A stretch of 18,259 nt of DNA, taken from Oscillospiraceae bacterium (GTDB lineage: Bacteria > Bacillota > Clostridia > Saccharofermentanales > Saccharofermentanaceae). A program made the translations under genes and the position numbers. Location of the stretch: positions 1 through 18,259 of the forward strand of contig CADBNJ010000181.1 of the NCBI GenBank assembly GCA_902795955.1. Reading direction: 5' to 3'. Of the stretch, positions 1-15,816 are shown one piece after another. A model generated the notes under the pieces. That model made no database searches and was not told the origin of the DNA. It saw only the letters and a program-made list of their open reading frames with translations. How positions within the stretch are numbered: position 1 is the stretch's first letter; each line of letters starts with the position of its first letter.

Positions 1-1496
1 GCTTCGGTCGTAGGCGCTGCCGGATCATAGATCCTGAAACTGACAAACTTCATATTTGAATAATTACCTACGCCGTTCAGGGTCAACGTCGCTGTCCCCA
101 CAAGGGTATTGGAAGAGAAATCATAAGTGTAATCAGTACCTCTCACCAGTTCCCGTTCACCGTCAAACACCGTGAATTCCGGCTTGACCGCAGAGCCTGT
201 ATATGGCATGTCTGTAATTCCGGTCACTGTAATATCCGAACTGTCTATGTCCTTCGCACTTATCGGGAACTTCACTTCTCTCGTTCCGTTGTAGTCTCCG
301 CTGCCGTTGATCGTTAACTTACCATATCCGGCATTAACATTGTCAGTAGCATAATATGTATAATCCTTCCCGTTCTCAAGAACAATGCCGTTATTTGTTA
401 CCGTAATATTCGGTGTAAGACTGCTTCCGTTATAGGTGACCGGATCGACACTGACTGAGATACCGGAGCTGCTGATGGCAACAGGCTTCACCTCAATACG
501 AATATTACTGCTTGTAGTCATTCCCTGATAAGAGATATTGGCAGTAATATAGCAATTGCCTACACCGACGGCCTGATAATAGGAACCGTCAACGATCTTG
601 ACAACGCTCTCATTGGAGGAAGACCATGTTACATCATATCCGGAATCGATCCTCATTCCCAGGAAGCATCCGGTATACTCGATCGTCTGGACGTCTTCAC
701 CCCAAGTCCAGGTCAGATACTCAAGCTGCATTGCTTCAGGCTTGCCCATAAACACATTTACTGATGGACAGGGATTCTTTGTGCCGATATTGGTCTCATA
801 ATGCTTGCCGTATTTGGCCTGTGTTACATATGACAGAAGACCCATCATATCCATGTCGAAAGGAACGTCTACTGTATTTACACTGTTATTGACACCGGGA
901 TCCGTAGTGTCTGATGATGCTGAATATCCGAACTCCTGTACCCAGTAATGGCTGTTGCCGACAACAACGTGAGCAATTCCGATACTCTTAAATCCGGAAT
1001 TGAGCATATTACGTCTGTGACCCTGACCTGCATAATCGCAGTCATTCTCCTGCCACGCCTCGAAAGCCTTCTCGTATGTATCGAGAGAATCAAGTGTACC
1101 GCACGCGATATTCTCTCCGCTCGTACTGACTCCGTTAACGGTGATGGAGAAAACTGAATCGCCGTTAGGTCTCTTGTGCTCTGCAAGGAGAACTATCTCA
1201 TAGGCTCTCTGCATTGCGATCTGTTCAAGGTTATAATCCCACTGAAGATTACCGAGTTTGCCGGCTGATATACTCGTCTTAGTCTTATTGTCCGGATTCC
1301 AGTACCAGTTCTTGCCGGTCCTCCATTGATTGAGGGAACTGAGCATCTCTCTGGCTGATGATTGATCATATGTGAAAGTAAGTGAATAATATGCAATATT
1401 GGAAGCTGTTACAATCCTTGCAACCAGCGCCACAGACAGTATTATCGCAAAGGCAGCCGCTATGTATCTTCTGCAACTGTATAAATAGGATCTCAT
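1..1496 (-). CDS. Secreted CAP-domain (SCP/PR-1-like) protein with Ig-like and tandem repeat domains, C-terminus cut by window edge
   Basis: The frame is open from ATG at 1496 to the window edge (498 codons, no stop), so the C-terminus is missing. Residues about 8-30 are a hydrophobic signal or anchor segment after a short basic N-terminus. Residues about 47-192 form a CAP domain: a His in EHKRPNGDS (about 107), GENIACG (127-133), a YEKAFEAWQEND helix, and GHRRNMLN (159-166). Then comes a bacterial Ig-like segment (WSSSNESVVKI region), followed by two tandem repeats of about 62 residues. Each repeat has Y-N/T-GS near its start, a K/GTDYTY motif in the middle and GxGxY near its end, as in surface proteins of gut Clostridia. 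The ATG has an AAAGGGGG SD 8 nt upstream. Bacterial CAP proteins are exported, but their substrates are mostly unknown, so the function is open. The domain call is firm; the role is not. Confidence 0.85.
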   Translation of the reverse strand, partial: MRSYLYSCRRYIAAAFAIILSVALVARIVTASNIAYYSLTFTYDQSSAREMLSSLNQWRTGKNWYWNPDNKTKTSISAGKLGNLQWDYNLEQIAMQRAYEIVLLAEHKRPNGDSVFSITVNGVSTSGENIACGTLDSLDTYEKAFEAWQENDCDYAGQGHRRNMLNSGFKSIGIAHVVVGNSHYWVQEFGYSASSDTTDPGVNNSVNTVDVPFDMDMMGLLSYVTQAKYGKHYETNIGTKNPCPSVNVFMGKPEAMQLEYLTWTWGEDVQTIEYTGCFLGMRIDSGYDVTWSSSNESVVKIVDGSYYQAVGVGNCYITANISYQGMTTSSNIRIEVKPVAISSSGISVSVDPVTYNGSSLTPNITVTNNGIVLENGKDYTYYATDNVNAGYGKLTINGSGDYNGTREVKFPISAKDIDSSDITVTGITDMPYTGSAVKPEFTVFDGERELVRGTDYTYDFSSNTLVGTATLTLNGVGNYSNMKFVSFRIYDPAAPTTE

Positions 1497-1506
1497 GCCT
1501 GTATCC

Positions 1507-1551
1507 CCCTTTGATAGATGTATATTTATATTTTACCATCTGATCAAAGGG
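1507..1551. repeat. Imperfect inverted repeat flanking the CAP-gene promoter
   Basis: On the minus strand CCCTTTGATCAGATG (1551-1537) faces CATCTATCAAAGGG (1520-1507) across a 16-nt AT-rich spacer. The arms pair as 9 bp plus 5 bp with one bulged C. The spacer holds the candidate -10, and the downstream arm contains the SD of the CAP gene. It could be a DNA operator, or an RNA hairpin in transcripts that read through from the gene upstream. There is no T-run after either arm, so it is not a classical terminator. Confidence 0.7.
1530..1538 (-). promoter_or_regulatory. Candidate extended -10 promoter of the CAP gene
   Basis: The minus strand reads TGGTAAAAT, an extended -10 (TGn followed by a 5/6 match to TATAAT). 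No good -35 lies at the usual distance. The start site would be near 1523, giving a leader of about 28 nt that includes the SD. The motif is in an AT-rich stretch, so it could be coincidental. Confidence 0.45.
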
Positions 1552-3139: not shown

Positions 3140-4624
3140 TCAGTCTTCCTCTTTGGTAAAACCGAACTGCCGGAGCATAGTGTCGTCGTTCTTCCAGTCT
3201 TCCCTGTACTTAACAAAAAGATCAAGGTAACACTTACATCCCGTCATGTTCTCGATACTCTTCCTTGCAGCAGTTCCGATGCGCTTGAGCATCTGACCGT
3301 CCTTACCGATGAGAATGGCTTTGTGAGACTTGCGTTCGCAGATGATCGAAGCTTCAATAACGACCATATCGCGGTCATATTCATCTTCGGAATCATCTTT
3401 ATACCTGTCCTCAAACTTAGTGACCTCAACAGCGACACCGTGAGGGATCTCCTGATTAGTAAAGTGAAGGACCTGTTCTCTGATGAATTCCCTTGCCATC
3501 TCCCTCTCGGTCTGATCCGTAAGATACTCTGTGTCATAAAGCCTGGGACCTTCAGGAAGGTTGTTCTTGATGACATCCATCAGAAGTTCAACATTCTTAC
3601 CTGATCTTGCACTGACGGGAACTATGTCCTTAAATTCAAAGACCTGCGAATAACTGGCGATAATGGGAAGCTGGTCTTCCTTCCTGATCTCGTCTGTCTT
3701 GTTGATCGCCAGGATAACGGATTTGCCTGACTTTCTGCACTTCTCAAGAAGATCAAGCTCCACCTTGCCGGGCTTTGGGAACCTCCCGTCTGCTATAAAC
3801 AGGATAAGGTCAGAATTCTTCGCAGTATTATAAGACCTGTCGACCATGATCTCAGCCATCTTGGACTTTGGAGCATGTACTCCCGGCGTATCGACAAATA
3901 TTATCTGGGAATCATCCGTATTATAGATGGATCTGATGTTGGTCCTTGTCGTCTGCGGCTTATGAGATACAATCGCAACCTTCATACCCGAGATGTAATT
4001 GAGCAACGTTGATTTACCGACGTTAGGCCTGCCCAGGATGGCAACATATCCCACATGATCACAATGTGTTCCTGCAGAGTATACCGGCTCATCATCTTCC
4101 GCCGCCTCTTCATCAAACCCAAGCCCGAGATCTGCCATCAGGAGTTTTTGCTTCGATATCATCCTTCGTTCTTCGCTCTGCTTCATGTGATCGTATCCGA
4201 GCAGATGCAGAAGTGAATGAGCGATCAGGAACAACACCTCACGTTCAACCGTATGACCGTATTCTTCAGCCTGCTTAACGGCAACGTCATGACAAAGCAC
4301 TATATCACCGAGATTGAATACCCTGTTGCCGTCATTGTCGAGTTCATAATCACATTCCGATACCGGCCCCGCGAGCTTGCCTTCTCTGAATTCAAGCATA
4401 GGGAAAGACAATACGTCGGTTACCTTATCGATCCCTCTGTTATCGCTGTTGATCTGACGTATCTCTTCTTCAGATACGGACATCAGGCTGCAATAACTGT
4501 TCCTGATCAGAGGAATAACTTCAGAAGACACATACTTTGTATCTTCAATGAGTTCGCTAAGCCTGGTTATCAGAGCTTCGTGCTCATTCAAAATTGCTTG
4601 GTTTTGTTGTATTTTGATTATCAT
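3140..4624 (-). CDS. ybeY-era: Fused YbeY endoribonuclease - Era GTPase
   Basis: One uninterrupted 494-residue ORF. Residues 1 to about 168 are YbeY: the conserved Arg63 in NRGIDKVTDVLSF and the three-His metal site HSLLHLLGYDH (His136, His140, His146; the usual Gly after the first His is Ser). After an acidic linker (about 171-182, DEEAAEDDEP) comes a complete Era: P-loop GRPNVGKST (198-206), DTPG (245-248), NKTD (308-311), SAR (338-340) and a C-terminal KH domain with IGKDGQMLKRIG (439-450). YbeY matures and checks 16S rRNA 3' ends; Era binds the same region during 30S assembly. No Met or SD lies near the Era start (between residues 163 and 213), which argues against separate translation. 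The ATG at 4624 overlaps pgpH by 41 nt and has a poor SD. An in-frame ATG at 4663 with AGGA 8-9 nt upstream would add 13 residues. Confidence 0.93.
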   Translation of the reverse strand: MIIKIQQNQAILNEHEALITRLSELIEDTKYVSSEVIPLIRNSYCSLMSVSEEEIRQINSDNRGIDKVTDVLSFPMLEFREGKLAGPVSECDYELDNDGNRVFNLGDIVLCHDVAVKQAEEYGHTVEREVLFLIAHSLLHLLGYDHMKQSEERRMISKQKLLMADLGLGFDEEAAEDDEPVYSAGTHCDHVGYVAILGRPNVGKSTLLNYISGMKVAIVSHKPQTTRTNIRSIYNTDDSQIIFVDTPGVHAPKSKMAEIMVDRSYNTAKNSDLILFIADGRFPKPGKVELDLLEKCRKSGKSVILAINKTDEIRKEDQLPIIASYSQVFEFKDIVPVSARSGKNVELLMDVIKNNLPEGPRLYDTEYLTDQTEREMAREFIREQVLHFTNQEIPHGVAVEVTKFEDRYKDDSEDEYDRDMVVIEASIICERKSHKAILIGKDGQMLKRIGTAARKSIENMTGCKCYLDLFVKYREDWKNDDTMLRQFGFTKEED

Positions 4625-6689: not shown

Positions 6690-7639
6690 TATCTGTCACC
6701 TTCCACTCTCTTGCCGTACCGTTCATACGCATCGACTATCTTCTGAACCAGGCTGTTCCTTACTATATCACAATTATGCATCGACACTATCGATATGCCT
6801 TCTATTCCGCTTATGACTTCCATGGCATCATGAAGACCGTCCGGCACTCCTCTCGGAAGATCGACCTGAGTAAAATCACCGCATACACAGGCCTTGCAGT
6901 TAAGTCCGAGTCTCGTCAGGAACATCTTCATCTGTTCCTTCGTCGTATTCTGTGCTTCATCCAGAAGCACAAAACAATCATCGAGATTACGTCCTCTCAT
7001 AAACGCCAGAGGGGACACTTCTATCAGACCCTTCTCATAATATCTCTCAAAAAGATCTCTTCCGAGCAAAGCCTCTATGGCATCATAGATAGGCCTCATG
7101 TAGGGATTGACCTTCTCTTCTATATCACCCGGCAGGAATCCGAGGCGCTCTCCGGCCTCGATAGCAGGCCTCGTAAGGATTATCTTGGACACTTCCCTGT
7201 TCCTGAACGCCCTGACAGCCATTGCAACCCCGAGAAACGTCTTGCCGCATCCGGCAGGTCCGCTGCAGATAACGATATCAGATCTTCTCAGCGCATCGAG
7301 ATAGACTCTCTGTCCGAGAGTCCTTGCCTTGACCGGCCTTCCTGTCGGCGTCGTATAATACACTTCATCCGCCGAATTAACAAACTCATTGAGCGCGCCT
7401 TTGCCGGCAAGAAAGATAATATAATCAACCGTTCTGTCATCAACCGGATTATCTTCTGTCAGCTTATCAAGAGCCGACAGAGCCTCCTCCGCATGAAGCA
7501 GATTAAGATTATCGTTCCCCTCAAGGATGATGTCACTGCCGTCAGTATCACACAGTACGGAGAAAGCAGATGATATCTTACTGAAGATACCACCTGATGA
7601 CAGTTCAGAGACGTTGATATTGCTTAATCTGTTTATCAT
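6689..7639 (-). CDS. phoH: PhoH-family ATPase
   Basis: This 316-residue cytosolic P-loop protein has an N-terminal KH-like segment (about 35-90), Walker A GPAGCGKT (127-134) and Walker B VLLDEAQN (224-231). TRPAIEAGERLGFLPGD and GDFTQVDLP are diagnostic of the PhoH/PhoL family. It is a putative RNA-linked ATPase; the link to ybeY and era is a long-standing genomic association, and the exact role is not settled. It heads the phoH-pgpH-ybeY/era-recO-vanY operon. There are two in-frame ATGs, at 7645 and 7639. I prefer 7639: the -10 hexamer ends at 7646, directly against the first ATG, so a transcript from this promoter would begin near 7639 and exclude it. Neither ATG has an SD. The first ATG could be used only in read-through mRNA from rluD. 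Confidence 0.93.
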   Translation of the reverse strand: MINRLSNINVSELSSGGIFSKISSAFSVLCDTDGSDIILEGNDNLNLLHAEEALSALDKLTEDNPVDDRTVDYIIFLAGKGALNEFVNSADEVYYTTPTGRPVKARTLGQRVYLDALRRSDIVICSGPAGCGKTFLGVAMAVRAFRNREVSKIILTRPAIEAGERLGFLPGDIEEKVNPYMRPIYDAIEALLGRDLFERYYEKGLIEVSPLAFMRGRNLDDCFVLLDEAQNTTKEQMKMFLTRLGLNCKACVCGDFTQVDLPRGVPDGLHDAMEVISGIEGISIVSMHNCDIVRNSLVQKIVDAYERYGKRVEGDR

Positions 7640-7645
7640 ACTCAT

Positions 7646-7674
7646 ATTATCCGATTATTCGCTCAAAAGGTCAA
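7646..7674 (-). promoter_or_regulatory. Promoter of the phoH operon, predicted leaderless
   Basis: -35 TTGACC (7674-7669), 17-bp spacer, -10 GATAAT (7651-7646), then 6 nt (ATGAGT) to the ATG at 7639. The 5/6 matches at both hexamers with ideal spacing, inside a 29-bp intergenic gap, make this one of the best promoters in the window. The expected start site falls on or next to the A of the ATG, and there is no SD. Confidence 0.75.
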
Positions 7675-8583
7675 TTACATCGGGGTAAGTCCTGCCAGAA
7701 CATTCTTGTAATAATCAGGTATATCACACTCAAAAAACAGCTTCTCTCCGGTTATGGGATGGACAAATTCGACAGACGTGCTGTGGAGGGCCTGTCCTTC
7801 AAGTCCGAATGACATTTTCTTAGTTGCGTAGAACGGATCACCGACCACGGGATGGCCGATATAATTAAGATGAACCCTGATCTGGTGGGTTCTTCCCGTC
7901 TCCAGCTTAAGAAGGAGATCTGTCGCTTCACAATACCTTCCGACCACCTCGAAATGCGTCACCGCATACTTGCCGTCGCCCTTTACGCTCATCTTGCGTC
8001 GGTCCTTGCCGGATCTTCCGATGGGCGCATCGATAGTTCCCCTGTCGCTCTTGATCACACCGTAGGCAATTGCCCTGTATTTACGCACAACATCGTGATT
8101 TGCTATCATTTCGGCAAGCTTAACATGCGTATCATTGTCCTTGCATGCGAGCATGAGCCCGGATGTATCCTTGTCTATCCTGTGCACGATCCCCGGTCTT
8201 AAGACGCCGTTTATATCAGACAGATGCCCCTCACAGTGCTTGAGCAGAGCGTTGACAAGTGTGCCGTCAGAGTGGCCTGCACCGGGATGAACTACCAGTC
8301 CCCTCGGCTTGTTGATAACGAGGAGATGCTCATCCTCGTAAACTATATCAAGAGGAATATCCTGCGGTATGTTGTCACTCTCAACCGGATCGGGAATATC
8401 GATCGATACAACATCATTCCTGCCTACAGGTGTTCCGGCCTTGGTTACGATGACCCCGTTGATGCTGACGGCACCTTCGCTGATGAGAGTCTTAAAATAC
8501 GATCTCGAATAATCGCTGTTCTTACCGGAAATGAATACATCCAGACGCTGCCCGTCTGAATCCGAGGTATATTCGCGCCTCAT
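7675..8583 (-). CDS. rluD: RluD-type 23S rRNA pseudouridine synthase
   Basis: The 302 residues have an N-terminal S4 RNA-binding domain (about 12-60) and an RluA-family catalytic domain with HRIDKDTSG (134-142; catalytic Asp137) and ETGRTHQIRVH. This class converts uridines to pseudouridine; RluD proper acts in helix 69 of 23S rRNA. The exact target here is inferred from family and context. The gene follows lspA with an ATGA overlap and an AAAGGA SD about 7 nt before the ATG, as in many Firmicutes (ylyB locus). I see no terminator between it and the phoH promoter. A second RluA-family gene lies on the plus strand of this window. Confidence 0.9.
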   Translation of the reverse strand: MRREYTSDSDGQRLDVFISGKNSDYSRSYFKTLISEGAVSINGVIVTKAGTPVGRNDVVSIDIPDPVESDNIPQDIPLDIVYEDEHLLVINKPRGLVVHPGAGHSDGTLVNALLKHCEGHLSDINGVLRPGIVHRIDKDTSGLMLACKDNDTHVKLAEMIANHDVVRKYRAIAYGVIKSDRGTIDAPIGRSGKDRRKMSVKGDGKYAVTHFEVVGRYCEATDLLLKLETGRTHQIRVHLNYIGHPVVGDPFYATKKMSFGLEGQALHSTSVEFVHPITGEKLFFECDIPDYYKNVLAGLTPM

Positions 8584-9158
8584 GCTTTGTCCTTTACCTT
8601 CCTGTGGAACAGTTCATTCCAGAAAGCGTCAAAATCCTTGGACGAGAAAAGTATGTACACTATCAGCAACAGTGTTCCTATGACTGCATAGCAATCTGCC
8701 AGATTAAATATCGGGAAAGTGTAGCTTCCGAAATCAAACCTTATGAAATCAATAACGTATTTGTAAGCAAACCTGTCGCAAAGGTTGCCGACCGCACCGG
8801 CCGCGATCATAGCAAGACATACACCTATCTTACTATGTTCGTGAAGTATCGCAAATACGACCAGTCCTATGAGGATAAGTCCGAATACTGCCGATATTCC
8901 GGTAAGAACATAAATCCCCCACGGCTTATCAGCAAGGAAACTGAATGCACTTCCCGTATTGCGCACATAGTGTATCGAGAAGAAGCCGCTTATTATGTCG
9001 CTCTTGTCGCCAAGAGCCATCTTAGATGTAATTGAATTCTTTGCTATCTGATCTGCAACAACCAGCAAAAGAATAAACATTAAGGCTGAAGTCACCCTGG
9101 TATGCTTATATCTGATGTCGCTAATAACTGTCTGCTCTGTAGTATTATTCTCACTCAT
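8580..9158 (-). CDS. lspA: Lipoprotein signal peptidase (signal peptidase II)
   Basis: This 192-residue integral membrane aspartyl protease removes the signal peptide of diacylglyceryl-modified prolipoproteins. Four hydrophobic helices are visible (about 22-40, 78-104, 110-126, 154-172). Conserved motifs are ADQIAK (Asp36), YVRNTGSAFS (64-73), GNLCDR, VIDFIRF (Asp137) and FNLADC (Asp155); the last two Asp residues are the expected catalytic pair. The N-terminus is about 20 residues longer than in many homologs and polar. In-frame ATGs occur at 9167 and 9158. I choose 9158 because the first overlaps a perfect TATAAT (9171-9166), so an mRNA from it would start at about 9158. No SD is seen. It is followed by rluD with a 4-nt overlap. 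Confidence 0.92.
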   Translation of the reverse strand: MSENNTTEQTVISDIRYKHTRVTSALMFILLLVVADQIAKNSITSKMALGDKSDIISGFFSIHYVRNTGSAFSFLADKPWGIYVLTGISAVFGLILIGLVVFAILHEHSKIGVCLAMIAAGAVGNLCDRFAYKYVIDFIRFDFGSYTFPIFNLADCYAVIGTLLLIVYILFSSKDFDAFWNELFHRKVKDKA

Positions 9159-9165
9159 AAGACAC

Positions 9166-9194
9166 ATTATACATAAAAAGAAGGATTATTCCAT
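9166..9194 (-). promoter_or_regulatory. Promoter of lspA-rluD, predicted leaderless
   Basis: A perfect -10 TATAAT (9171-9166) sits 7 nt before the ATG at 9158. At 17-bp spacing the -35 is weak (ATGGAA, 9194-9189, 3/6). TG lies directly before the -10. The promoter overlaps the hairpin and T-run at the end of ymdB. Confidence 0.6.
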
Positions 9195-9199
9195 CCTTT
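9175..9199 (-). terminator. Weak intrinsic terminator after ymdB
   Basis: Just past the ymdB stop, the minus strand has AAGGAT (9198-9193), a 6-nt loop, ATCCTT (9186-9181), then C and TTTTT (9179-9175). The 6-bp AT-rich stem is weak, so termination is probably partial. The T-run runs straight into the lspA -10. Confidence 0.45.
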
Positions 9200-9206
9200 A
9201 TTAAGC

Positions 9207-9989
9207 CTACTCATACTCGGTAAAGCGCGTAACAGACCTGCATCTGCCGTAATCGTCAACATCTATGATCACACCGTTCATGAACCCGGGCCCGTCAGCC
9301 GGTTCGTACCTCCTCGGCAGCTTATATGCAAGTCTTGCAAGTGACGTCTCAATATCCATTCCGAGCACCGAATCGACTGCGCCCGTCATGCCGCTGTCAG
9401 TAATATATCCGGTACCTCCGGGAAGCACCCTGTTATCCGATGTCTGGACGTGCGTGTGAGTACCGATCACCGCAGTTGCCATGCCGTCGAAGAAGTAACC
9501 CAAAGCCTGCTTCTCCGAAGTCGTCTCCGCATGGAAATCAACGATCACGGTGTCACACTTCTCCTTATCCTTAAGCCTTCCGATCAGCTCCTCGCCCTTA
9601 TCGAAAGGGCTGTCTGCCGACATTCCCACATTGATCTGCCCCATGAGATTGATCACGCCGATCCTGTGCCCGCATTTATCTATTATGCAGTAATCCCTGC
9701 CGGGCCACTCCGACGATACATTGGAAGGTCTCACAACATTGTCAAAATTCTGTATCTGCCTCAGGAAATCATAATTAGAGAAAGCATGATTGCCGAGCGT
9801 GATGATATCGCAGCCTGTAAGCATCAGTTCATTAACGATCTTCTCTGAGCAGCCCAGTCCGTGGGCTGCATTCTCGGCATTGCAAATGACAACATCTATA
9901 TCATTGTGGACAATAAGATCAGGAAGAACGGTCTTGACGACGCGCCTCCCGCAGTTACCAACAACATCACCGATAAAACAGATCTTCAT
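9207..9989 (-). CDS. ymdB: YmdB-family metallophosphodiesterase
   Basis: The 260-residue cytosolic dimetal phosphoesterase matches the YmdB/TIGR00282 family end to end. Motifs are FIGDVVGNCGR with Asp8, NAENAAHG (Glu39/Asn40), GNHAF (Asn67-His68), DFHAETTSEK, and GTHTHVQTSDNR, which supplies further metal-binding histidines. The Bacillus subtilis homolog is a 2',3'-cyclic-nucleotide phosphodiesterase that affects biofilm and sporulation choices. As in Bacilli it lies next to rny, but here a strong terminator and a separate promoter lie between them. An in-frame ATG upstream at 10046 is rejected, because its 19 extra residues would be read from terminator and promoter DNA and match nothing in the family. 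The ATG at 9989 has no SD and follows a -10 by 7 nt. Confidence 0.92.
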   Translation of the reverse strand: MKICFIGDVVGNCGRRVVKTVLPDLIVHNDIDVVICNAENAAHGLGCSEKIVNELMLTGCDIITLGNHAFSNYDFLRQIQNFDNVVRPSNVSSEWPGRDYCIIDKCGHRIGVINLMGQINVGMSADSPFDKGEELIGRLKDKEKCDTVIVDFHAETTSEKQALGYFFDGMATAVIGTHTHVQTSDNRVLPGGTGYITDSGMTGAVDSVLGMDIETSLARLAYKLPRRYEPADGPGFMNGVIIDVDDYGRCRSVTRFTEYE

Positions 9990-9996
9990 AAAAGAG

Positions 9997-10024
9997 ATTT
10001 TACCATAAAAGGCAGGCCAGACAA
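9997..10024 (-). promoter_or_regulatory. Promoter of ymdB, predicted leaderless
   Basis: -35 TTGTCT (10024-10019), 16-bp spacer, extended -10 TGGTAAAAT (10005-9997), then 7 nt (CTCTTTT) to the ATG at 9989. The sequence before the ATG is pyrimidine-rich with no SD. Confidence 0.7.
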
Positions 10025-10031
10025 CTATCAG

Positions 10032-10044
10032 GCCTTCGGAAGGC
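10032..10044. repeat. 13-bp perfect palindrome upstream of the ymdB promoter
   Basis: GCCTTCGGAAGGC is self-complementary around a central G. It lies 7 bp upstream of the ymdB -35 and directly after the T-run of the rny terminator. It could be a small operator or a chance remnant; nothing else supports a role. Confidence 0.4.
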
Positions 10045-10075
10045 AAAAAAAGAACCGCCTCTTGCGAAGCGGCTC
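10045..10075 (-). terminator. Strong rho-independent terminator of rny
   Basis: On the minus strand a 10-bp stem (10075-10066 with 10061-10052, including two G-U pairs) is closed by a GCAA loop of the GNRA class and followed by seven T (10051-10045). It lies about 67 nt after the rny stop. There is no T-run on the other side, so it acts in the minus direction only. Confidence 0.92.
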
Positions 10076-10142
10076 TTCCTATTGGACTTTGGTGAATCCC
10101 AAACTGATATAAAACAAAACTAAGGTAATAATTGTAATTGCT

Positions 10143-11705
10143 TTATTTAGCAAAATCTGTAGCTCTTGTCTCGCGGATCACGCTGACCTTGACCTGACCG
10201 GGATAAGACAGCTCATCTTCGATGCGCTTACATATCTGTCTGGCCTTAATTACCATCTCATCATCGGATATCTTATCCGGTGACACGATTACGCGGATCT
10301 CACGTCCTGCCTGAATGGCATAACTCTTCTCGACACCGTCAAAGCTTGTAGCGATCTCCTCAAGCTTCTCGATCCTCTTGATGTATGTCTCAAGATTCTC
10401 TCTTCTGGCACCGGGACGTGCGGCAGAGATTGCATCTGCAGCGGCCACAAGAACAGCAACTGCCGTCCTGGGCTCAACATCACCGTGATGTGCTTCAATT
10501 GCATTGATGACATCAGGTGATTCGTGGTACTTTTTGGCGATCTCAACGCCAAGCTGAACATGGGTTCCTTCCTGTTCAAAATCAACGGCCTTACCGATAT
10601 CGTGCAAGAGACCTGCTCTCTTCGCAAGATTAACATCGAGTCCCAGTTCGCTTGCCATAAGTCCTGCAAGCCAGGAGACTTCGATGGAGTGCTGAAGTAC
10701 GTTCTGACCGTAACTTGTTCTGTACTTCAGCCTTCCGAGTATCTTAACCAATTCAGGATTGAGGTTCATGACACCTGTATCAAATACGGCTCTCTCACCT
10801 TCCTGCTTCATAACCTGGTTAAGTTCCTTCTCGGACTTCTTTACCATCTCCTCGATTCTTGCGGGATGGATCCTTCCGTCCACGACAAGCTTCTCAATGG
10901 TAAGTCTGGCGATTTCTCTTCTGATGGGATCAAATGACGACAGGATGATCGCTTCAGGTGTGTCATCAATGATCAGATCAACACCTGTGATCGTCTCGAT
11001 GGCACGTATATTACGACCTTCACGTCCGATGATCCTTCCCTTCATCTCGTCATTAGGGAGATTAACCACTGATACGGTAACTTCAGAGACATAATCGGAT
11101 GCAAAACGCTGAATGGAATTAACAATAATATCCTTTGCAATGCGATCTGCTTCCTGCTTTGTCTTCTCTTCCATCTGTTTGAGCATTGCAGCAAGATCAT
11201 GACTGTACTCTCTCTCAGCCGCTTCAAGGACCAATGCCCTTGCATCGCTGATCGACAGACCGGATACCTTCTCGAGTTCAGTCTGCTTACGGGCTTCGAT
11301 CTCCCGTGCACGCTGTTCGAGTTCAGCGATCTTGATCTGTTTGTCTTCGATCTCCTGCTGCTTCTTCTCAACAGAGGCCTGAATACGCTCAATGTTCTCT
11401 TCCTTCTGTTCGAGTCTGTTACGTTCCTTTGCAATCTCCTGACGTTTCTCCCTGGCTTCGTTCTCTAATTCGTGACGAGCCTTGGATACTTCCTCCTTAG
11501 CCTGCAAAAGAAGTTCCCTCTTATTGCTCTCCCCTTCCTTCTGGGCATTTGCAATTATCTTCTCGCTGTCTGCGAGAGACTTGGCAAGATCTTCCTTCAG
11601 CTGCTTCTGCTGTGCAGACAGACCGCGCTTGTAGAAGATCGATGTGCATATTAACCCAAGGACGAGGCCAACAACAAGACCAATGATTAAAAATAACCAC
11701 TCCAC
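10143..11705 (-). CDS. rny: Ribonuclease Y
   Basis: The 520-residue membrane-anchored endoribonuclease initiates mRNA decay in many Gram-positives. In order: one transmembrane helix (about 3-23), a long charged coiled coil (about 30-190, rich in E/K/Q), a KH domain with GREGRNIR (227-234), and an HD domain with [12 protein letters not shown] (His339), LLHDIGK (His368-Asp369) and EAHHGD (405-409). Length and order match the family. The start is GTG at 11705, preceded by GGAGGTGA; the gap from GGAGG to GTG is 12 nt, slightly long. No other start in frame fits. It has its own near-consensus promoter, a leader of about 66 nt and a strong terminator, so it is probably monocistronic. Confidence 0.95.
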
Positions 11706-11750
11706 TGTTGGTACTCACCTCCAATATTAAGTTGTCAAAGTTCGATTTGT

Positions 11751-11771
11751 AAAAGTGGCTCTGACAAGCCA
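11751..11771 (-). other. Small hairpin in the rny 5' leader
   Basis: At the predicted 5' end of the rny mRNA, TGGCT (11771-11767) pairs with AGCCA (11760-11756) around a 6-nt loop, followed by CTTTT. The stem is only 5 bp. It could stabilise the 5' end or be a weak attenuator; RNase Y mRNA is autoregulated in some species, but nothing here proves that. Confidence 0.3.
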
Positions 11772-11777
11772 TTTATT

Positions 11778-11806
11778 ATAATAAAAATAATTGAACGCTA
11801 TGTCAA
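11778..11806 (-). promoter_or_regulatory. Promoter of rny
   Basis: Perfect -35 TTGACA (11806-11801), 17-bp spacer, -10 TATTAT (11783-11778, 5/6). A perfect TATAAT also starts 3 bp downstream (11780-11775) but at 20-bp spacing. The start site is expected near 11771. It is divergent from the plus-strand rluA-like promoter, with about 30 bp between the -35 boxes. Confidence 0.8.
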
Positions 11807-11836
11807 CCTTTCGAAGGGCTTCCGGATTACAAAAAA

Positions 11837-11865
11837 TTGACTTTTTGCATCAAAGAGCCCAAAAT
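11837..11865 (+). promoter_or_regulatory. Promoter of the plus-strand RluA-family gene, predicted leaderless
   Basis: -35 TTGACT (11837-11842, 5/6), 17-bp spacer, -10 CAAAAT (11860-11865, 4/6), then 6 nt (ACGCTC) to the ATG at 11872. The geometry is the same as at phoH. The nearest purine-rich stretch (AAAGAG) is about 14 nt from the ATG, too far for a good SD. Confidence 0.6.
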
Positions 11866-11871
11866 ACGCTC

Positions 11872-12798
11872 ATGAAAATTAATTATACAGTACCCGGCAA
11901 AGATGACGGACGCGAGATAATGCGCATTCTCGGTACCGAATTCAAGATGAGCCGCCAGATGATAAAGAAGCTTAAGTTCGGCGGCACCGTCGAGCTCAAC
12001 GGCGTGCATGCCACAGTCAGAGAGCGTGTTAAGCCGGGAGATGTCCTGTTTTGCGAGATGGAAGAGACGTGCGGAATTATAAAGCACCCGGACGGGATCA
12101 TTTTCAGACACGAGGACGAACACTACATCGTATGCGACAAGCCCTCAGGGATCGTAACACACCCCACACACGGCCATCTTGACGATTCCCTTCTGACCAG
12201 ATTGTCCGACGGAACCCTTCACCCGGTAATAAGGCTCGACCGCGAGACCAGCGGTCTCATACTTATAGCAAAAAACGGCTATTCACACAACACTTTATCG
12301 GTTTACGGGAATCTGAACAAGAAATATCTGGCTGTATGCTACGGCAGATTTGACGAAGACAGCGGTACGATAGATGCTCCCATAGCAAGACGCGAGGGAT
12401 CTGTCATGATCCGCGAAGTAACTCCTGACGGCAAGAGATCCGTCACTCATTACAGGACTCTCCACTATGATGAAGCCGGAGATCTGTCCCTTGTCGAATT
12501 CGAGCTTGAGACCGGCCGGTGCCACCAGATAAGAGTTCACTCGCTCTATAAGGGACATCCGCTTGCGGGAGACGGGCTGTACGGTCCTAATTCAAACGAT
12601 AACCCTTCTGATCTGTATCCTGATTCGAAGACTATAGACGGGATCATTGGAAGATGCGCTCTTCATGCATATTATCTGTCTTTGTATGATCCTTTCGAGA
12701 AGTGCGGCAGGGTGTTCAGATCTCCGCTGCCCGATGACATGAGAAATCTCTTCTCATCTCCTGAACTGGTTGATGAGATTCTTGGCAAGATTTACTGA
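11872..12798 (+). CDS. RluA-family pseudouridine synthase
   Basis: The 308-residue RNA pseudouridine synthase has an N-terminal S4-like domain (about 10-60) and a catalytic domain with IRLDRETSG (120-128; catalytic Asp123; Ile where many relatives have His) and ETGRCHQIRVHS. It is the only plus-strand gene in the window. It diverges from rny and runs 45 bp into the 3' end of recN. An in-frame ATG at 11791 would extend it by 27 residues through promoter DNA with no family similarity. ATG 11872 matches the family N-terminus and sits 6 nt after a -10. The target RNA (23S rRNA or tRNA) cannot be told from sequence; similarity to the RluD-type gene at 7675-8583 is only at family level, so they are probably not recent duplicates. 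Confidence 0.88.
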   Translation: MKINYTVPGKDDGREIMRILGTEFKMSRQMIKKLKFGGTVELNGVHATVRERVKPGDVLFCEMEETCGIIKHPDGIIFRHEDEHYIVCDKPSGIVTHPTHGHLDDSLLTRLSDGTLHPVIRLDRETSGLILIAKNGYSHNTLSVYGNLNKKYLAVCYGRFDEDSGTIDAPIARREGSVMIREVTPDGKRSVTHYRTLHYDEAGDLSLVEFELETGRCHQIRVHSLYKGHPLAGDGLYGPNSNDNPSDLYPDSKTIDGIIGRCALHAYYLSLYDPFEKCGRVFRSPLPDDMRNLFSSPELVDEILGKIY

Positions 12799-14445
12799 TT
12801 CATCATCAGATTTGCCTGACAATAACCGCGACACTTCAAGCACCTTGCCGTCACTGTCAAGCTTCGTAACCGTTGCAGAGGTATTGTCTTCGCTCCTGTT
12901 CTTCGTAAGCATGTAATTATTGTCTGCAGCGGCGCATATCTGGGATGTATGCGAGACACAGAGAACCTGGTGCTGATCCCCTATGGAATGCAGCTTATAG
13001 GCGATCGCAACTGATGCCTTGCCCGATACGCCCATATCGATCTCATCGAAAACAAGAGTCGGGATGCTGTCACATCTGCTCAGTATATTCTTGACCGCAA
13101 GCATTATCCTTGAGGCCTCGCCACCGGATACTATCGAAGACAGAGGCTTGACTTCCTGACCTGGATTGGCGCTGAACATGAACCTGATATCATAAGTGCC
13201 GTGAGACGAGAAGAACCTGTCATTAGGCCTCTTTGTGAATTCGACTTTGAATATGGAATCCGGCATCTCCAGATCCGCAAGTTCCTTAACAATATCTGAT
13301 TCGAGCTCTTCTGCAGTCTTCCTGAGCACCTTATCAAGATCTCCGGAGGCAATGAGAAGTTCAGACTCCAGGACATGACGCTTCTTCTTAAGCTCTGAGA
13401 CTATCTCTTTATTATTCTCGAACGAATCAAGTTCGGCTTCCGCATCACTCCTGAACTTCAGTATATCCTCGACCGTGTCTCCGTATTTGGATCTCAATTC
13501 ATATATCTTACTGATCCGGCGGTCTGTATCTTCCTTGACCTGGGGATCATAATCGAGTTCTTCAAGAAGCGATATTACTTCCTCGCTGACAGCTTGAATC
13601 TCGAGGAGAGATGAAGACAGTCTCTGCTCCAGATCACCGGTATTGACAGTCTCGCTCTTTATCTTGCCGATAACAGATGCGGCCATAGATAACTTGGAAA
13701 TTACGCCGCGGTCATTTCCCTGATCATCCAGGCATTCACATGCGGCCTGAAGTGATCCGGCGATCCTGGCACCTTCCGCCATCTTCCTCTTCAAAGCGAG
13801 AAGCTCCTCCTCCATGCCTGGGTGAAGCTCGGCTTCGTCTATCTCGGATATTGCAAACTCAAGGTATTCCCTGCGCCTCTTGAGGAGCTCGGGAGACTGT
13901 GAGAGATTGCGTATCCTGAGGACAAGTTCCTTGTATCCTGCGAGTTTCTCATCATAAATAACTTTGGCTTTTCTGACATCTTCCCCGCCGAAAGCAAAGA
14001 GCATATCACAATTACGGTTCTCGTCAAAGATAACCTGCGTATCATTCTGTCCGTGAACATCGACAAGGTAGCTTGCGAGTTGTCTGAGAACTGCCAGTAC
14101 AACAGTCTTGCCGTTGATGCGGGCAGTACTCTTGCCTTCACTGCTGATCTTACGGCTGATTATGAGAGTTCCTTCTTCAGGTTCTATATCCGTATCTTTG
14201 AGAAATGCTTCAAATCCCTCATCTGTTACATCAGCTATATCAAAAACAGCCTCAACGTAAGCATATCCGGAATCAGACCTGATGATATTGCGGCTGGCCT
14301 TATCCCCCATGATGAGGCCCAGGGCATCAACAAGAAGGCTCTTGCCCGCACCTGTCTCACCGGTTATGACATTCAGTCCCCTGCCGGGCTCAAAAACAGC
14401 ATGAGAAATAACAGCAAAATTACTGATCTCAAGTCTTGTCAGCAT
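12754..14445 (-). CDS. recN: DNA repair protein RecN
   Basis: The 563-residue SMC-like ATPase acts early at double-strand breaks. N-terminal Walker A GETGAGKS is at 29-36, followed by coiled-coil arms (about 150-370). The C-terminal lobe has an ABC signature SGGEASRIMLAVK, Walker B TLVFDEIDMGVSG and a switch His in CVSHTSQI. Length is normal (about 555-575). The ATG overlaps the argR stop by 7 nt, with AGGTG about 2-6 nt upstream. argR-recN adjacency is standard in Clostridia and Bacilli. There spoIVB and spo0A commonly follow; here the gene ends inside the 3' end of the convergent rluA-like gene, and no intrinsic terminator is visible. Confidence 0.95.
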   Translation of the reverse strand: MLTRLEISNFAVISHAVFEPGRGLNVITGETGAGKSLLVDALGLIMGDKASRNIIRSDSGYAYVEAVFDIADVTDEGFEAFLKDTDIEPEEGTLIISRKISSEGKSTARINGKTVVLAVLRQLASYLVDVHGQNDTQVIFDENRNCDMLFAFGGEDVRKAKVIYDEKLAGYKELVLRIRNLSQSPELLKRRREYLEFAISEIDEAELHPGMEEELLALKRKMAEGARIAGSLQAACECLDDQGNDRGVISKLSMAASVIGKIKSETVNTGDLEQRLSSSLLEIQAVSEEVISLLEELDYDPQVKEDTDRRISKIYELRSKYGDTVEDILKFRSDAEAELDSFENNKEIVSELKKKRHVLESELLIASGDLDKVLRKTAEELESDIVKELADLEMPDSIFKVEFTKRPNDRFFSSHGTYDIRFMFSANPGQEVKPLSSIVSGGEASRIMLAVKNILSRCDSIPTLVFDEIDMGVSGKASVAIAYKLHSIGDQHQVLCVSHTSQICAAADNNYMLTKNRSEDNTSATVTKLDSDGKVLEVSRLLSGKSDDESVNLAKNLINQFRR

Positions 14446-14912
14446 TCACCTGCTCCAATTACAAGATCATTCAATGTTGACACGAGCGCGGCTGCCTCAT
14501 CCATTCCCGAGGAGGCCACAAACACCGTATCATCACCGGCGATCGTTCCTACGATACCTGACAGATGCATGGAATCGAGAGCTGACGCAGCTGCCTGAGC
14601 CATGCCGGGAAGAGTCTTGATGACAACGATATTCATTGCATTCTCTATTGTCCTGACGGAATTGGAGAACACCGCCAGAAGACGGCCGGGAGCCGAATCG
14701 CCGGTCCTGTCGAGAACTGCATATTTGGTGCTTTTATTGGGAAGCGTTACCTTGATGATCCCCAGATCCTTGATATCTCTGGATACGGTAGCCTGGGTGG
14801 TATTGATCCCGGATTCACGCACCAGAGACGTAAGCTCTTCCTGCGTCGTTATATCCTGCTCCCTGATAAGCTTAAGTATCATTTCCTGTCTGGAGTTCTT
14901 AGCTGTTTTCAT
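14439..14912 (-). CDS. argR: Arginine repressor ArgR/AhrC
   Basis: The 157-residue hexameric regulator binds ARG boxes when arginine is present. The N-terminal winged helix is at about 5-70, with QATVSRDIKDLG (40-51; Ser44-Arg45 contact DNA in the family). The C-terminal oligomerisation and arginine-binding domain is at about 80-150, with GTIAGDDT (122-129; Asp pair for arginine). The ATG lies within the last 14 nt of nadK and has an AAGGGGAG SD at good distance, so it is SD-initiated within the operon. No arginine biosynthesis genes or clear ARG boxes are in this window, so its regulon lies elsewhere. Confidence 0.95.
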   Translation of the reverse strand: MKTAKNSRQEMILKLIREQDITTQEELTSLVRESGINTTQATVSRDIKDLGIIKVTLPNKSTKYAVLDRTGDSAPGRLLAVFSNSVRTIENAMNIVVIKTLPGMAQAAASALDSMHLSGIVGTIAGDDTVFVASSGMDEAAALVSTLNDLVIGAGEC

Positions 14913-15771
14913 AAAAGCTCCCCTTCATGATTATCTTCCTGCGGATAACATTAAAGAATCCTTCGGGATTAAAGTCTATCGTCTTGAGCATTTTACCGTA
15001 TGCTTTGATGACAACCCGGTCATTATCCTCAAAATCCACAAGATCACGTCCGTCAAGACATATGATCGGAGGTGTCTCAAAAGGTTCAACAATGACCTCG
15101 ACAATACTGTCAGGACTGACGACATAGCTGAATCCGCTGAATGTATGAGAGCAGTTTGTCGTAATTATCATATCCCTCATTTCCGGCATAAGGACCGGGC
15201 CGCCTGCGGCAAGATTATATGCAGTCGAGCCGGTTGCCGTGGATATTATCAGACCGTCCCCTATAAATCTCTCCGCGACCTGTCCGTCCACCTTAAGGAG
15301 AAGCTTTACCGTATGCAGCTTTGCACCCCGCCCGATCGAGCAGTCATTAAGGCTCAGTCCCCTCTTCTTAAGCACACCGTCTTTGTTATATACGCTGACA
15401 TCAAGTCTGTTCCTTAACAGGATCTTGTAATCACCCTTAACGAGCCTGCCGATGCAGTTATCAAGATCCTGTTCGTCGATCTGCGCAAGGAAGCCTATAC
15501 TTCCTTTATTGATCCCGATGAATGCGGCATCAGTACCGCCATACTCGGCTACAGTGGCGAGGAAAGTACCGTCGCCGCCGACCGATATTATCACATCAGG
15601 CGATGCATCGGACAGATCTTCGTAAACAACGCCGTCCAAAGGAGGAAAACCCTCCTTATCCTCAGGCTTGAGAACCGGGACAGCCCCGTACTTAAGTATT
15701 GCCTGTGCCGCTTTATATGCACAGGCATAACCCTTATCTCTGTTCGTATTAACTTTAATTCCGATGCGCAT
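14899..15771 (-). CDS. nadK: NAD kinase
   Basis: The 290-residue cytosolic enzyme phosphorylates NAD to NADP. Motifs are VGGDGTFL (Gly-Gly-Asp-Gly at about 65-68), GINKGSIGFLA, LNDCSIGRGAK in the position of the usual NE/D motif, and TATGSTAYNLAAGGP, where Ala replaces the usual Pro of TPTGSTAY. Two in-frame ATGs occur at 15777 and 15771. I choose 15771, because the -10 TTTAAT ends at 15778 against the first ATG and the protein then begins MRIGIKVN. There is no SD. The tlyA gene that usually sits between dxs and nadK in Clostridia is absent; only 45 nt separate the dxs stop from this start. Confidence 0.93.
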   Translation of the reverse strand: MRIGIKVNTNRDKGYACAYKAAQAILKYGAVPVLKPEDKEGFPPLDGVVYEDLSDASPDVIISVGGDGTFLATVAEYGGTDAAFIGINKGSIGFLAQIDEQDLDNCIGRLVKGDYKILLRNRLDVSVYNKDGVLKKRGLSLNDCSIGRGAKLHTVKLLLKVDGQVAERFIGDGLIISTATGSTAYNLAAGGPVLMPEMRDMIITTNCSHTFSGFSYVVSPDSIVEVIVEPFETPPIICLDGRDLVDFEDNDRVVIKAYGKMLKTIDFNPEGFFNVIRRKIIMKGSFYENS

Positions 15772-15777
15772 ATGCAT

Positions 15778-15786
15778 ATTAAACCA
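15778..15786 (-). promoter_or_regulatory. Extended -10 promoter of nadK-argR-recN, predicted leaderless
   Basis: The minus strand reads TGGTTTAAT (15786-15778): TGn plus a 5/6 -10, followed by 6 nt (ATGCAT) and the ATG at 15771. No convincing -35 is present (TGTATT at 17-bp spacing, 2/6), so activity would depend on the extended -10. It lies in the 39-bp gap after dxs. Confidence 0.5.
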
Positions 15787-15816
15787 TTAATCTGAATAAA
15801 AATACAGTGCTGAGAG

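What the first reader, a model, noticed from the sequence alone, without database searches (positions are those of the whole stretch)
7637..15786. Five transcription-unit heads predicted to be leaderless, with a fixed -10 to ATG distance
phoH, ymdB, lspA, nadK and the plus-strand rluA-like gene have no SD, and each has a -10-like hexamer ending 6 or 7 nt before the ATG: GATAAT-6-ATG, TAAAAT-7-ATG, TATAAT-7-ATG, TTTAAT-6-ATG and CAAAAT-6-ATG. Three have a recognisable -35 at 16-17 bp (TTGACC, TTGTCT, TTGACT), and two have a TGn extension. Transcription would start on or next to the A of the start codon. Genes inside operons (argR, recN, dxs, rluD, pgpH, recO) have SD-like sequences instead. Leaderless starts are common in Actinobacteria and Deinococcus but are not the textbook mode in Clostridia. 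If general in this genome, it is a split initiation system: leaderless at unit heads, SD inside operons.
Basis: partly seen in the sequence, partly recalled or inferred. Interest (0 to 1): 0.7.

Follow-up and report, generated by a model that had tools for sequence, protein, structure and literature searches.

The report
Leaderless gene starts in rumen Clostridia
Five genes in this rumen bacterium have their promoter pressed right up against the start codon, so their messages probably begin at the start codon with no ribosome-binding leader; in related species some of the same genes still have a leader, but in this genome most genes do not work this way.

Summary
All five starts have the stated -10 hexamer 6 or 7 nt before the ATG and no SD; a motif-blind gene caller picks the same ATGs. 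Conservation argues against chance: sought without regard to spacing, the best promoter lies 6-7 nt from the start in 27 of 29 sequences of the near clade (window and L001-L005). For nadK, an ARG-box-like operator and the -10 form a rigid block, 9 nt apart. In 6 of 6 near-clade sequences 6 nt follow the -10; in 19 of 21 other species with the operator, 24-33 nt, usually with an SD, separate the matching hexamer from the same ATG. So the leader was lost (or gained) as a block while promoter and start codon stayed. ymdB differs in the same way inside the near clade.

The general claim fails. In the genome sample the box lies at 6-7 nt in about 7% of heads (90% bootstrap 3.5-12%) and at 20-44 nt in about 64%. 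rny and the CAP gene in this window are SD-led. Three of the five 'heads' follow a same-strand gene by 35-48 nt. TATAAT-N6/7-ATG is in excess in 78 of 78 sampled genus genomes (pooled ratio 1.63; 1.12 in 190 other class genomes). No transcript data.

The parts
7637..7639 (-). phoH start codon; predicted transcription start at its A
7646..7651 (-). phoH -10 GATAAT, 6 nt before ATG
   Evidence: GATAAT in 6 of 6 near-clade sequences
7669..7674 (-). phoH -35 TTGACC, 17 bp spacer, at the end of the rluD gap
   Evidence: TTGACC at 17 bp in 6 of 6 near-clade sequences
9156..9158 (-). lspA start codon
9166..9171 (-). lspA -10 TATAAT, 7 nt before ATG
   Evidence: 5 of 5 near-clade sequences at 7 nt
9987..9989 (-). 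ymdB start codon
9997..10002 (-). ymdB extended -10 (TGG)TAAAAT, 7 nt before ATG
10019..10024 (-). ymdB -35 TTGTCT, 16 bp spacer
10036..10088 (-). terminator-like hairpin with T run after rny, in front of the ymdB promoter
   Evidence: -22.6 kcal/mol, z -3.3; not listed by the scan
11837..11842 (+). rluA-like gene -35 TTGACT, 17 bp spacer
11860..11865 (+). rluA-like gene -10 CAAAAT, 6 nt before ATG
   Evidence: box at 6 nt in 40 of 54 sequences
11872..11874 (+). rluA-like start codon
15769..15771 (-). nadK start codon
15778..15783 (-). nadK extended -10 (TGG)TTTAAT, 6 nt before ATG
15793..15806 (.). ARG-box-like 14-mer, 9 bp upstream of the nadK -10; landmark for the leader change
   Evidence: 1 match, 0.05 expected; 27 species
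11703..11722 (-). rny GTG start with upstream GGAGG: a leadered head, counter-example
   Evidence: by eye; SD in 6 of 6 near-clade sequences; promoter 11806..11778
1494..1510 (-). CAP-domain gene ATG with AGGGGG before it: counter-example (head status inferred)
   Evidence: by eye; domain

Best explanation
The five starts are leaderless (or nearly so, 0-1 nt): RNA polymerase with the housekeeping sigma factor binds the -35/-10 directly before the gene and begins on or next to the A of ATG, and the ribosome starts on the 5'-terminal AUG without SD pairing. At least for nadK, phoH and ymdB they are alternative forms of ordinary leadered promoters: promoter (and, at nadK, operator) and start codon stayed, and the 20-30 nt SD leader between them disappeared. 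In this genome they are a minority (roughly one head in ten or fewer) beside SD-led heads and SD-led operon genes. Shown: motifs, spacing, conservation, block difference in leader length, genome and genus enrichment. Inferred: the transcription start itself, translation of the leaderless message, the direction of change (loss of the leader), and any benefit.
For: Motif-blind calls give the same starts. Best promoter, sought over the upstream 70 nt without regard to spacing, lies 6-7 nt from the start in 27 of 29 near-clade sequences: phoH 6/6, nadK 6/6, rluA-like 6/6, lspA 5/5, ymdB 4/6; in other genus members phoH 1/31, ymdB 0/32, nadK 0/35, lspA 0/14, rluA-like 27/48 (52). Box without SD in 26 of 29 near-clade sequences. 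Other genes with a box at 5-8 nt: rny 0/57, recN 0/43, argR 0/43, pgpH 0/37, dxs 1/33; rluD 8/49, and those 8 rows are the rluA-like gene picked by mistake. nadK operator-9 nt-hexamer block: 6 of 6 near clade with 6 nt to ATG; of 21 others with the operator, 19 have TTAAAT and 24-33 nt, 2 (L017, L022) have another hexamer there. ymdB: L003 and L005 keep TAAAAT 22 and 27 nt away with an SD (19, 52). Gap to the upstream gene: nadK 38-50 nt in the near clade, 55-87 in 26 of 30 others (34, 35, 319 and 332 in the rest); phoH 31-35 against 40-54 in 26 of 31 others (7-26 in the rest). Around rny, strict boxes at 6-7 nt in 13 of 32 near-clade heads other than the rluA-like gene, 17 of 371 in other genus members, 1 of 109 in eight outgroup loci. 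Own sample: 19 of 198 heads against 5.3 expected, internal 1 of 137; of the 19, base -1 is T or C in 18 and the start is ATG in 15. Genus ratio above 1 in 78 of 78, pooled 1.63; 190 other class genomes 1.12. Outgroup ymdB SD-led in 10 of 10.
Against: No transcript or ribosome data. The -35 signal over all candidates is weak (mean 2.0 of 6 matches at 17 bp, 1.2-1.9 at other spacers). A start-agnostic count (any ATG opening 80 or more codons) gave in the own sample 50 at 6+7 nt against 33.7 with a spread of 15.6 caused by codon phase, and the count over all ATGs shows no excess (61+69): not decisive. Absence of SD in the 19 is partly mechanical, since the box occupies the SD position. The G007 sample gives only 1%, though its whole-genome ratio is 1.61. 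The exact operator 14-mer was not found before nadK in 14 of 35 other genus members. The anti-SD could not be read. The deep forks of the rny tree are unresolved, and with three states nadK needs 4 changes, ymdB 4, rluA-like 3, lspA 2, phoH 1, so loss of the leader is not formally separated from gain for nadK and phoH.
Confidence: 0.85

Rival explanations
1. The genes are co-transcribed with, or led from promoters further upstream of, their neighbours, and the -10-like hexamers are AT-rich sequence kept to leave the start region unstructured (non-SD, S1-type initiation).
For: phoH, lspA and nadK follow same-strand genes at 35, 48 and 45 nt with no terminator listed. Under the loose rule AT-rich hexamers are common at many distances.
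Against: Hexamer, -35 or TGn and exact spacing are conserved rather than mere AT content; nadK carries a fixed operator block; other genes of the locus do not show the box at that place.
Confidence: 0.1
2. A genome-wide split system: leaderless at unit heads, SD inside operons.
For: Named operon genes of the window have SD-like sequences (by eye); strict boxes at 6-7 nt are nearly confined to heads (19 of 198 against 1 of 137).
Against: About 7% of heads have the box at 6-7 nt, about 64% at 20-44 nt; 106 of 198 heads have 4 or more SD nt; rny and the CAP gene in this window are SD-led.
Confidence: 0.04
3. Leaderless promoters are favoured where a promoter must fit a short gap between same-strand genes (compaction, or insulation from read-through), rather than at isolated heads. 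This could be true together with the best explanation.
For: Strict boxes at 6-7 nt in 12 of 92 same-strand gaps of 26-55 nt (0 of 92 at the control spacing 11-12) against 10 of 228 larger same-strand gaps, p 0.012; gaps shrink together with the leader.
Against: Without the window's genes and the G084 nadK it is 8 of 88 and p 0.11; divergent heads have 11 of 150 (6 at the control spacing); the rluA-like gene and ymdB are not in such gaps.
Confidence: 0.3

Closest known systems
TA-led leaderless genes of bacteria (Zheng et al. 2011, PMC3160421, passages seen)
   Same: -10-like signal about 10 bp upstream of the start and no SD; changes between SD-led and TA-led orthologs are described for Actinobacteria.
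   Different: [quoted passage not shown] here a genus of rumen Clostridia, with an operator landmark showing the leader changing as a block.
Leaderless transcriptome of Mycobacterium tuberculosis (Cortes 2013, PMC3898074, search listing only)
   Same: Leaderless and SD-led genes in one genome (recalled).
   Different: Measured there; here predicted, and roughly one head in ten or fewer.
TSS-mapped Clostridia: C. difficile (PMC7438776), C. phytofermentans (PMC5171806), three solventogenic clostridia (PMC9045289), and RNA-seq of C. acetobutylicum (PMC4533764); passages seen
   Same: Leaderless starts exist: 15 genes; 4% of one TSS class; 2-3% of transcripts; 212 transcripts.
   Different: In C. 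[quoted passage not shown] here the SD is absent and the box spacing is conserved across species.
ARG box / ArgR (AhrC) operators (consensus recalled, from no call)
   Same: 14-mer TGNATWWWWATNCA in front of a unit that holds argR.
   Different: Binding not tested; here it stands before a leaderless nadK.

Membership tests
Bacterial leaderless gene | -10 box ending about 6-7 nt before the start codon | tested here: met
   5 of 5 in the window; 27 of 29 near-clade sequences
Bacterial leaderless gene | no SD before the start | tested here: met
   5 of 5 in the window; 26 of 29 near-clade sequences have the box and no SD
Bacterial leaderless gene | mRNA 5' end at the start codon | not testable with these tools
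   no transcript data
Bacterial leaderless gene | translated from the leaderless message | not testable with these tools
   no ribosome profiling or proteome
Split initiation system (leaderless heads, SD internal) | most heads leaderless | tested here: not met
   about 7% of 198 sampled heads
Split initiation system (leaderless heads, SD internal) | SD specific to internal genes | tested here: not met
   4 or more SD nt in 87 of 137 internal genes and in 106 of 198 heads
ArgR operator | ARG-box 14-mer near the promoter of an argR-containing unit | tested here: met
   consensus recalled
ArgR operator | bound by ArgR with arginine | not testable with these tools
   none

The most novel reading that the evidence does not exclude
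In this lineage of rumen Clostridia, SD-led promoters are repeatedly turned into leaderless ones by block loss of the 20-30 nt leader, with operator, -10 and start codon kept in place, so that closely related species express the same operon from the same promoter by two different translation-initiation modes.
Probability: 0.55. Interest if true: 0.6.

Novelty: new member of a known kind. Interest (0 to 1): 0.45.

Why it matters
It offers natural pairs of promoters (nadK, phoH, ymdB) with and without an SD leader, so the cost and benefit of leaderless initiation could be tested outside Actinobacteria and Deinococcus. It also warns that start prediction and expression design that assume an SD may go wrong for a share of genes in this genus.

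Tried and rejected
Anti-SD in 16S: no 16S in the own genome or in 12 other genomes, one of them a single contig, though 9 of 14 control genomes ring; probably withheld, so untestable. One search used a wrong (E. coli-type) 3'-end pattern on 78 genomes; a better one on 12; both found none.

Start-agnostic ORF count: swamped by codon phase. 6+7 nt against twice the mean of other spacings: own 50/33.7, G084 40/22.8, G051 49/26.7, G007 17/19.8, G018 20/15.9. From its 'all' row for the own sample I reckon that spacings 6-7 and 11-12 differ about 1.1-fold by phase alone, close to the class ratio 1.12; hence the class is the baseline.

Spacing 6 alone against the reversed pattern: higher in 13 of 13 genus genomes; in 8 genomes of other families of the order 7/9, 15/2, 30/27, 35/23, 12/7, 34/33, 4/12, 20/10.

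Free motif EM on G007 and G018 drifted to other motifs; replaced by a fixed motif. A first ortholog rule missed nadK because it demanded A at position 2; relaxed for all genes.

Mixture values (own 7%, G084 9%, G051 4%, G007 1%, G018 0.1%) rest on 482, 269, 360, 400 and 160 kb. At spacing 7 in L006-L056, 7 of 15 rows are rny with a mis-called start (my reading of place and N-terminus).

Literature searches. 'Saccharofermentans' with 'leaderless' gave 0 papers; only open-licence PMC papers are held. Lomsadze 2018 is not held.
Full report
What the window is. RNase Y of the window is 92-99% identical to five loci (L001-L005; record titles Mageeibacillus sp., Clostridiales bacterium, Saccharofermentans sp., Ruminococcaceae bacterium YRB3002) and 75-83% identical to 52 further loci with similar titles (L006-L056, L060). 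Genomes given as 'same genus' have the same range of identity (70 of 78 with a match), so I treat those loci as the genus; that is an inference. The own genome G000 is a 1.86 Mb draft in 349 contigs, 69% complete. Gene names were checked with NCBIfam and Pfam.

Check of the observation. All five hexamers, spacings, the three -35s and the two TGn extensions are as written. A gene caller that scores coding hexamers only picks the same ATGs: 7639, 9158, 9989, 11872, 15771. The named operon genes show purine-rich SD-like sequences (by eye). 'Transcription-unit head' is secure for the rluA-like gene (divergent from rny) and ymdB (hairpin and T run behind rny, z -3.3). phoH, lspA and nadK follow same-strand genes at 35, 48 and 45 nt; no terminator is listed in those gaps and they fold no better than most shuffles, but the scan missed the rny hairpin too.

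Genome-wide test. 482 kb of the own genome (window plus contigs 1-80) gave 335 genes with enough upstream sequence, 198 heads and 137 internal. A -10 with at least 5 of 6 matches sits 6 or 7 nt from the start in 19 heads against 5.3 expected from the other spacings, and in 1 internal gene against 2.4. Four of the 19 are in the window; 15 remain against about 5.2 by scaling. The larger peak is at about 28-36 nt, the leadered genes. A mixture model with one fixed motif puts 7.3% of heads (90% bootstrap 3.5-12.1%) at 6-7 nt and 64% at 20-44 nt; G084 8.8%, G051 4.3%, G007 1.1%, G018 of another family 0.1%. The 19 have base -1 T or C in 18, ATG in 15, SD in 0; the other heads have T or C in 112 of 179 and an SD in 106 of 179. 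The lack of SD is partly forced, since the box takes its place. A start-agnostic count was not decisive.

Genus and class. Whole-genome counts of TATAATN{6,7}ATG against TATAATN{11,12}ATG: 6400 against 3915 in 78 sampled genomes of the genus, ratio above 1 in 78; 29599 against 26542 in 190 sampled other genomes of the class, ratio 1.12, above 1 in 150. Much of the 1.12 can be codon phase (my reckoning). The genomes are related, so the p-value does not count independent events.

Orthologs. In the near clade (window, L001-L005) the best promoter over the upstream 70 nt is 6-7 nt from the start in 27 of 29 sequences; in the rest of the genus it is so in 1 of 31 for phoH, 0 of 32 for ymdB, 0 of 35 for nadK, 0 of 14 for lspA and 27 of 48 for the rluA-like gene. 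By the box-without-SD rule the near clade has 26 of 29. The rluA-like gene keeps a box at 6 nt in 40 of 54 sequences; 12 have an SD and no box, 2 neither. rny, recN, argR and pgpH have 0 of 180 boxes at 5-8 nt, dxs 1 of 33; the 8 of 49 for rluD are rluA-like rows picked by mistake. Over all called heads of the rny region other than the rluA-like gene, strict boxes at 6-7 nt are in 13 of 32 near-clade heads, 17 of 371 in L006-L056 and 1 of 109 in eight outgroup loci. lspA in other genus members overlaps the gene before it by 8 nt in 12 of 14 cases, so there it is an operon gene.

The landmark. A 14-mer of the ARG-box form (consensus recalled) lies at 15793-15806 (1 match, 0.05 expected), before the nadK-argR-recN genes. 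It occurs within 110 nt upstream of nadK in 27 of 41 sequences, each followed by 9 nt and a hexamer. Near clade, 6 of 6: TTTAAT, then 6 nt, then ATG. Others: TTAAAT in 19 of 21, then 24-33 nt, usually with a GGAGG-like SD, then the matching ATG; L017 and L022 differ. Operator and hexamer have not moved against each other; only the stretch between hexamer and ATG differs. The gap to dxs is 38-50 nt in the near clade and 55-87 nt in 26 of 30 others. phoH shows the same pattern (TTGACC-17-GATAAT-6/7; elsewhere the best promoter is 19-22 nt away in 23 of 31), and ymdB differs inside the near clade: L003 and L005 keep TAAAAT but with 22 and 27 nt and an SD.

Direction. On the rny tree phoH changes state once; with a third state 'neither', nadK needs 4 changes, ymdB 4, rluA-like 3, lspA 2. 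The main branches of the genus meet in an unresolved fork, so for phoH and nadK loss of the leader is the likelier but not the proven direction. For ymdB the ten outgroup sequences are all SD-led, which favours loss.

Mechanism. Shown: sequence, spacing, conservation, enrichment. Inferred: transcription begins at or next to the A; the ribosome starts on the 5' AUG as known for leaderless mRNAs (general knowledge). A benefit is open: strict boxes are commonest in same-strand gaps of 26-55 nt (12 of 92; 10 of 228 in larger gaps, p 0.012), but this loses significance without the genes that prompted it (8 of 88, p 0.11). Zheng et al. mention that leaderless genes would not be translated from leakage of an upstream operon (passage), which would suit phoH, lspA and nadK.

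Literature. Zheng 2011 found leaderless genes among Firmicutes in Lactobacillales and Mycoplasma (passages). Few are reported in C. difficile (15 genes), C. phytofermentans (4%) and three solventogenic clostridia (2-3%); an RNA-seq study lists 212 leaderless transcripts in C. acetobutylicum. So the kind is known; I found no paper on this genus in the library searched.

Noticed in passing
15793-15806: ARG-box-like 14-mer in front of nadK-argR-recN, present in 27 of 41 nadK upstream regions; suggests ArgR autoregulation with nadK and recN in the same unit.
   Followed up: partly
3140-4591 (-): YbeY and Era are fused in one 483-aa ORF; 33 of 35 matched loci cover both parts in one piece. YbeY-Era fusions in some Clostridia are known (PMC10582724, passages).
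   Followed up: partly
11770-11872: Divergent rny and rluA-like promoters lie back to back; in many other genus members what looks like the rny -35 (TTGACA on the other strand) falls just before the rluA-like -10 (by eye).
   Followed up: no
G089, G122, G169, G191, G230 (family f8) and G247, G263 (family f64): Two other class families, f8 with genomes of 0.8-1.1 Mb, also show a raised TATAATN6-7ATG to N11-12 ratio (1.2-2.1); possible further leaderless-rich Clostridia, small counts.
   Followed up: no
9176-9200 (-): A small hairpin with a T run behind ymdB overlaps the lspA promoter region; it folds no better than shuffles.
   Followed up: partly
G000 and 12 other G genomes: No 16S rRNA match, even in a one-contig genome, while control genomes ring; rRNA seems withheld from the held genomes.
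   Followed up: no
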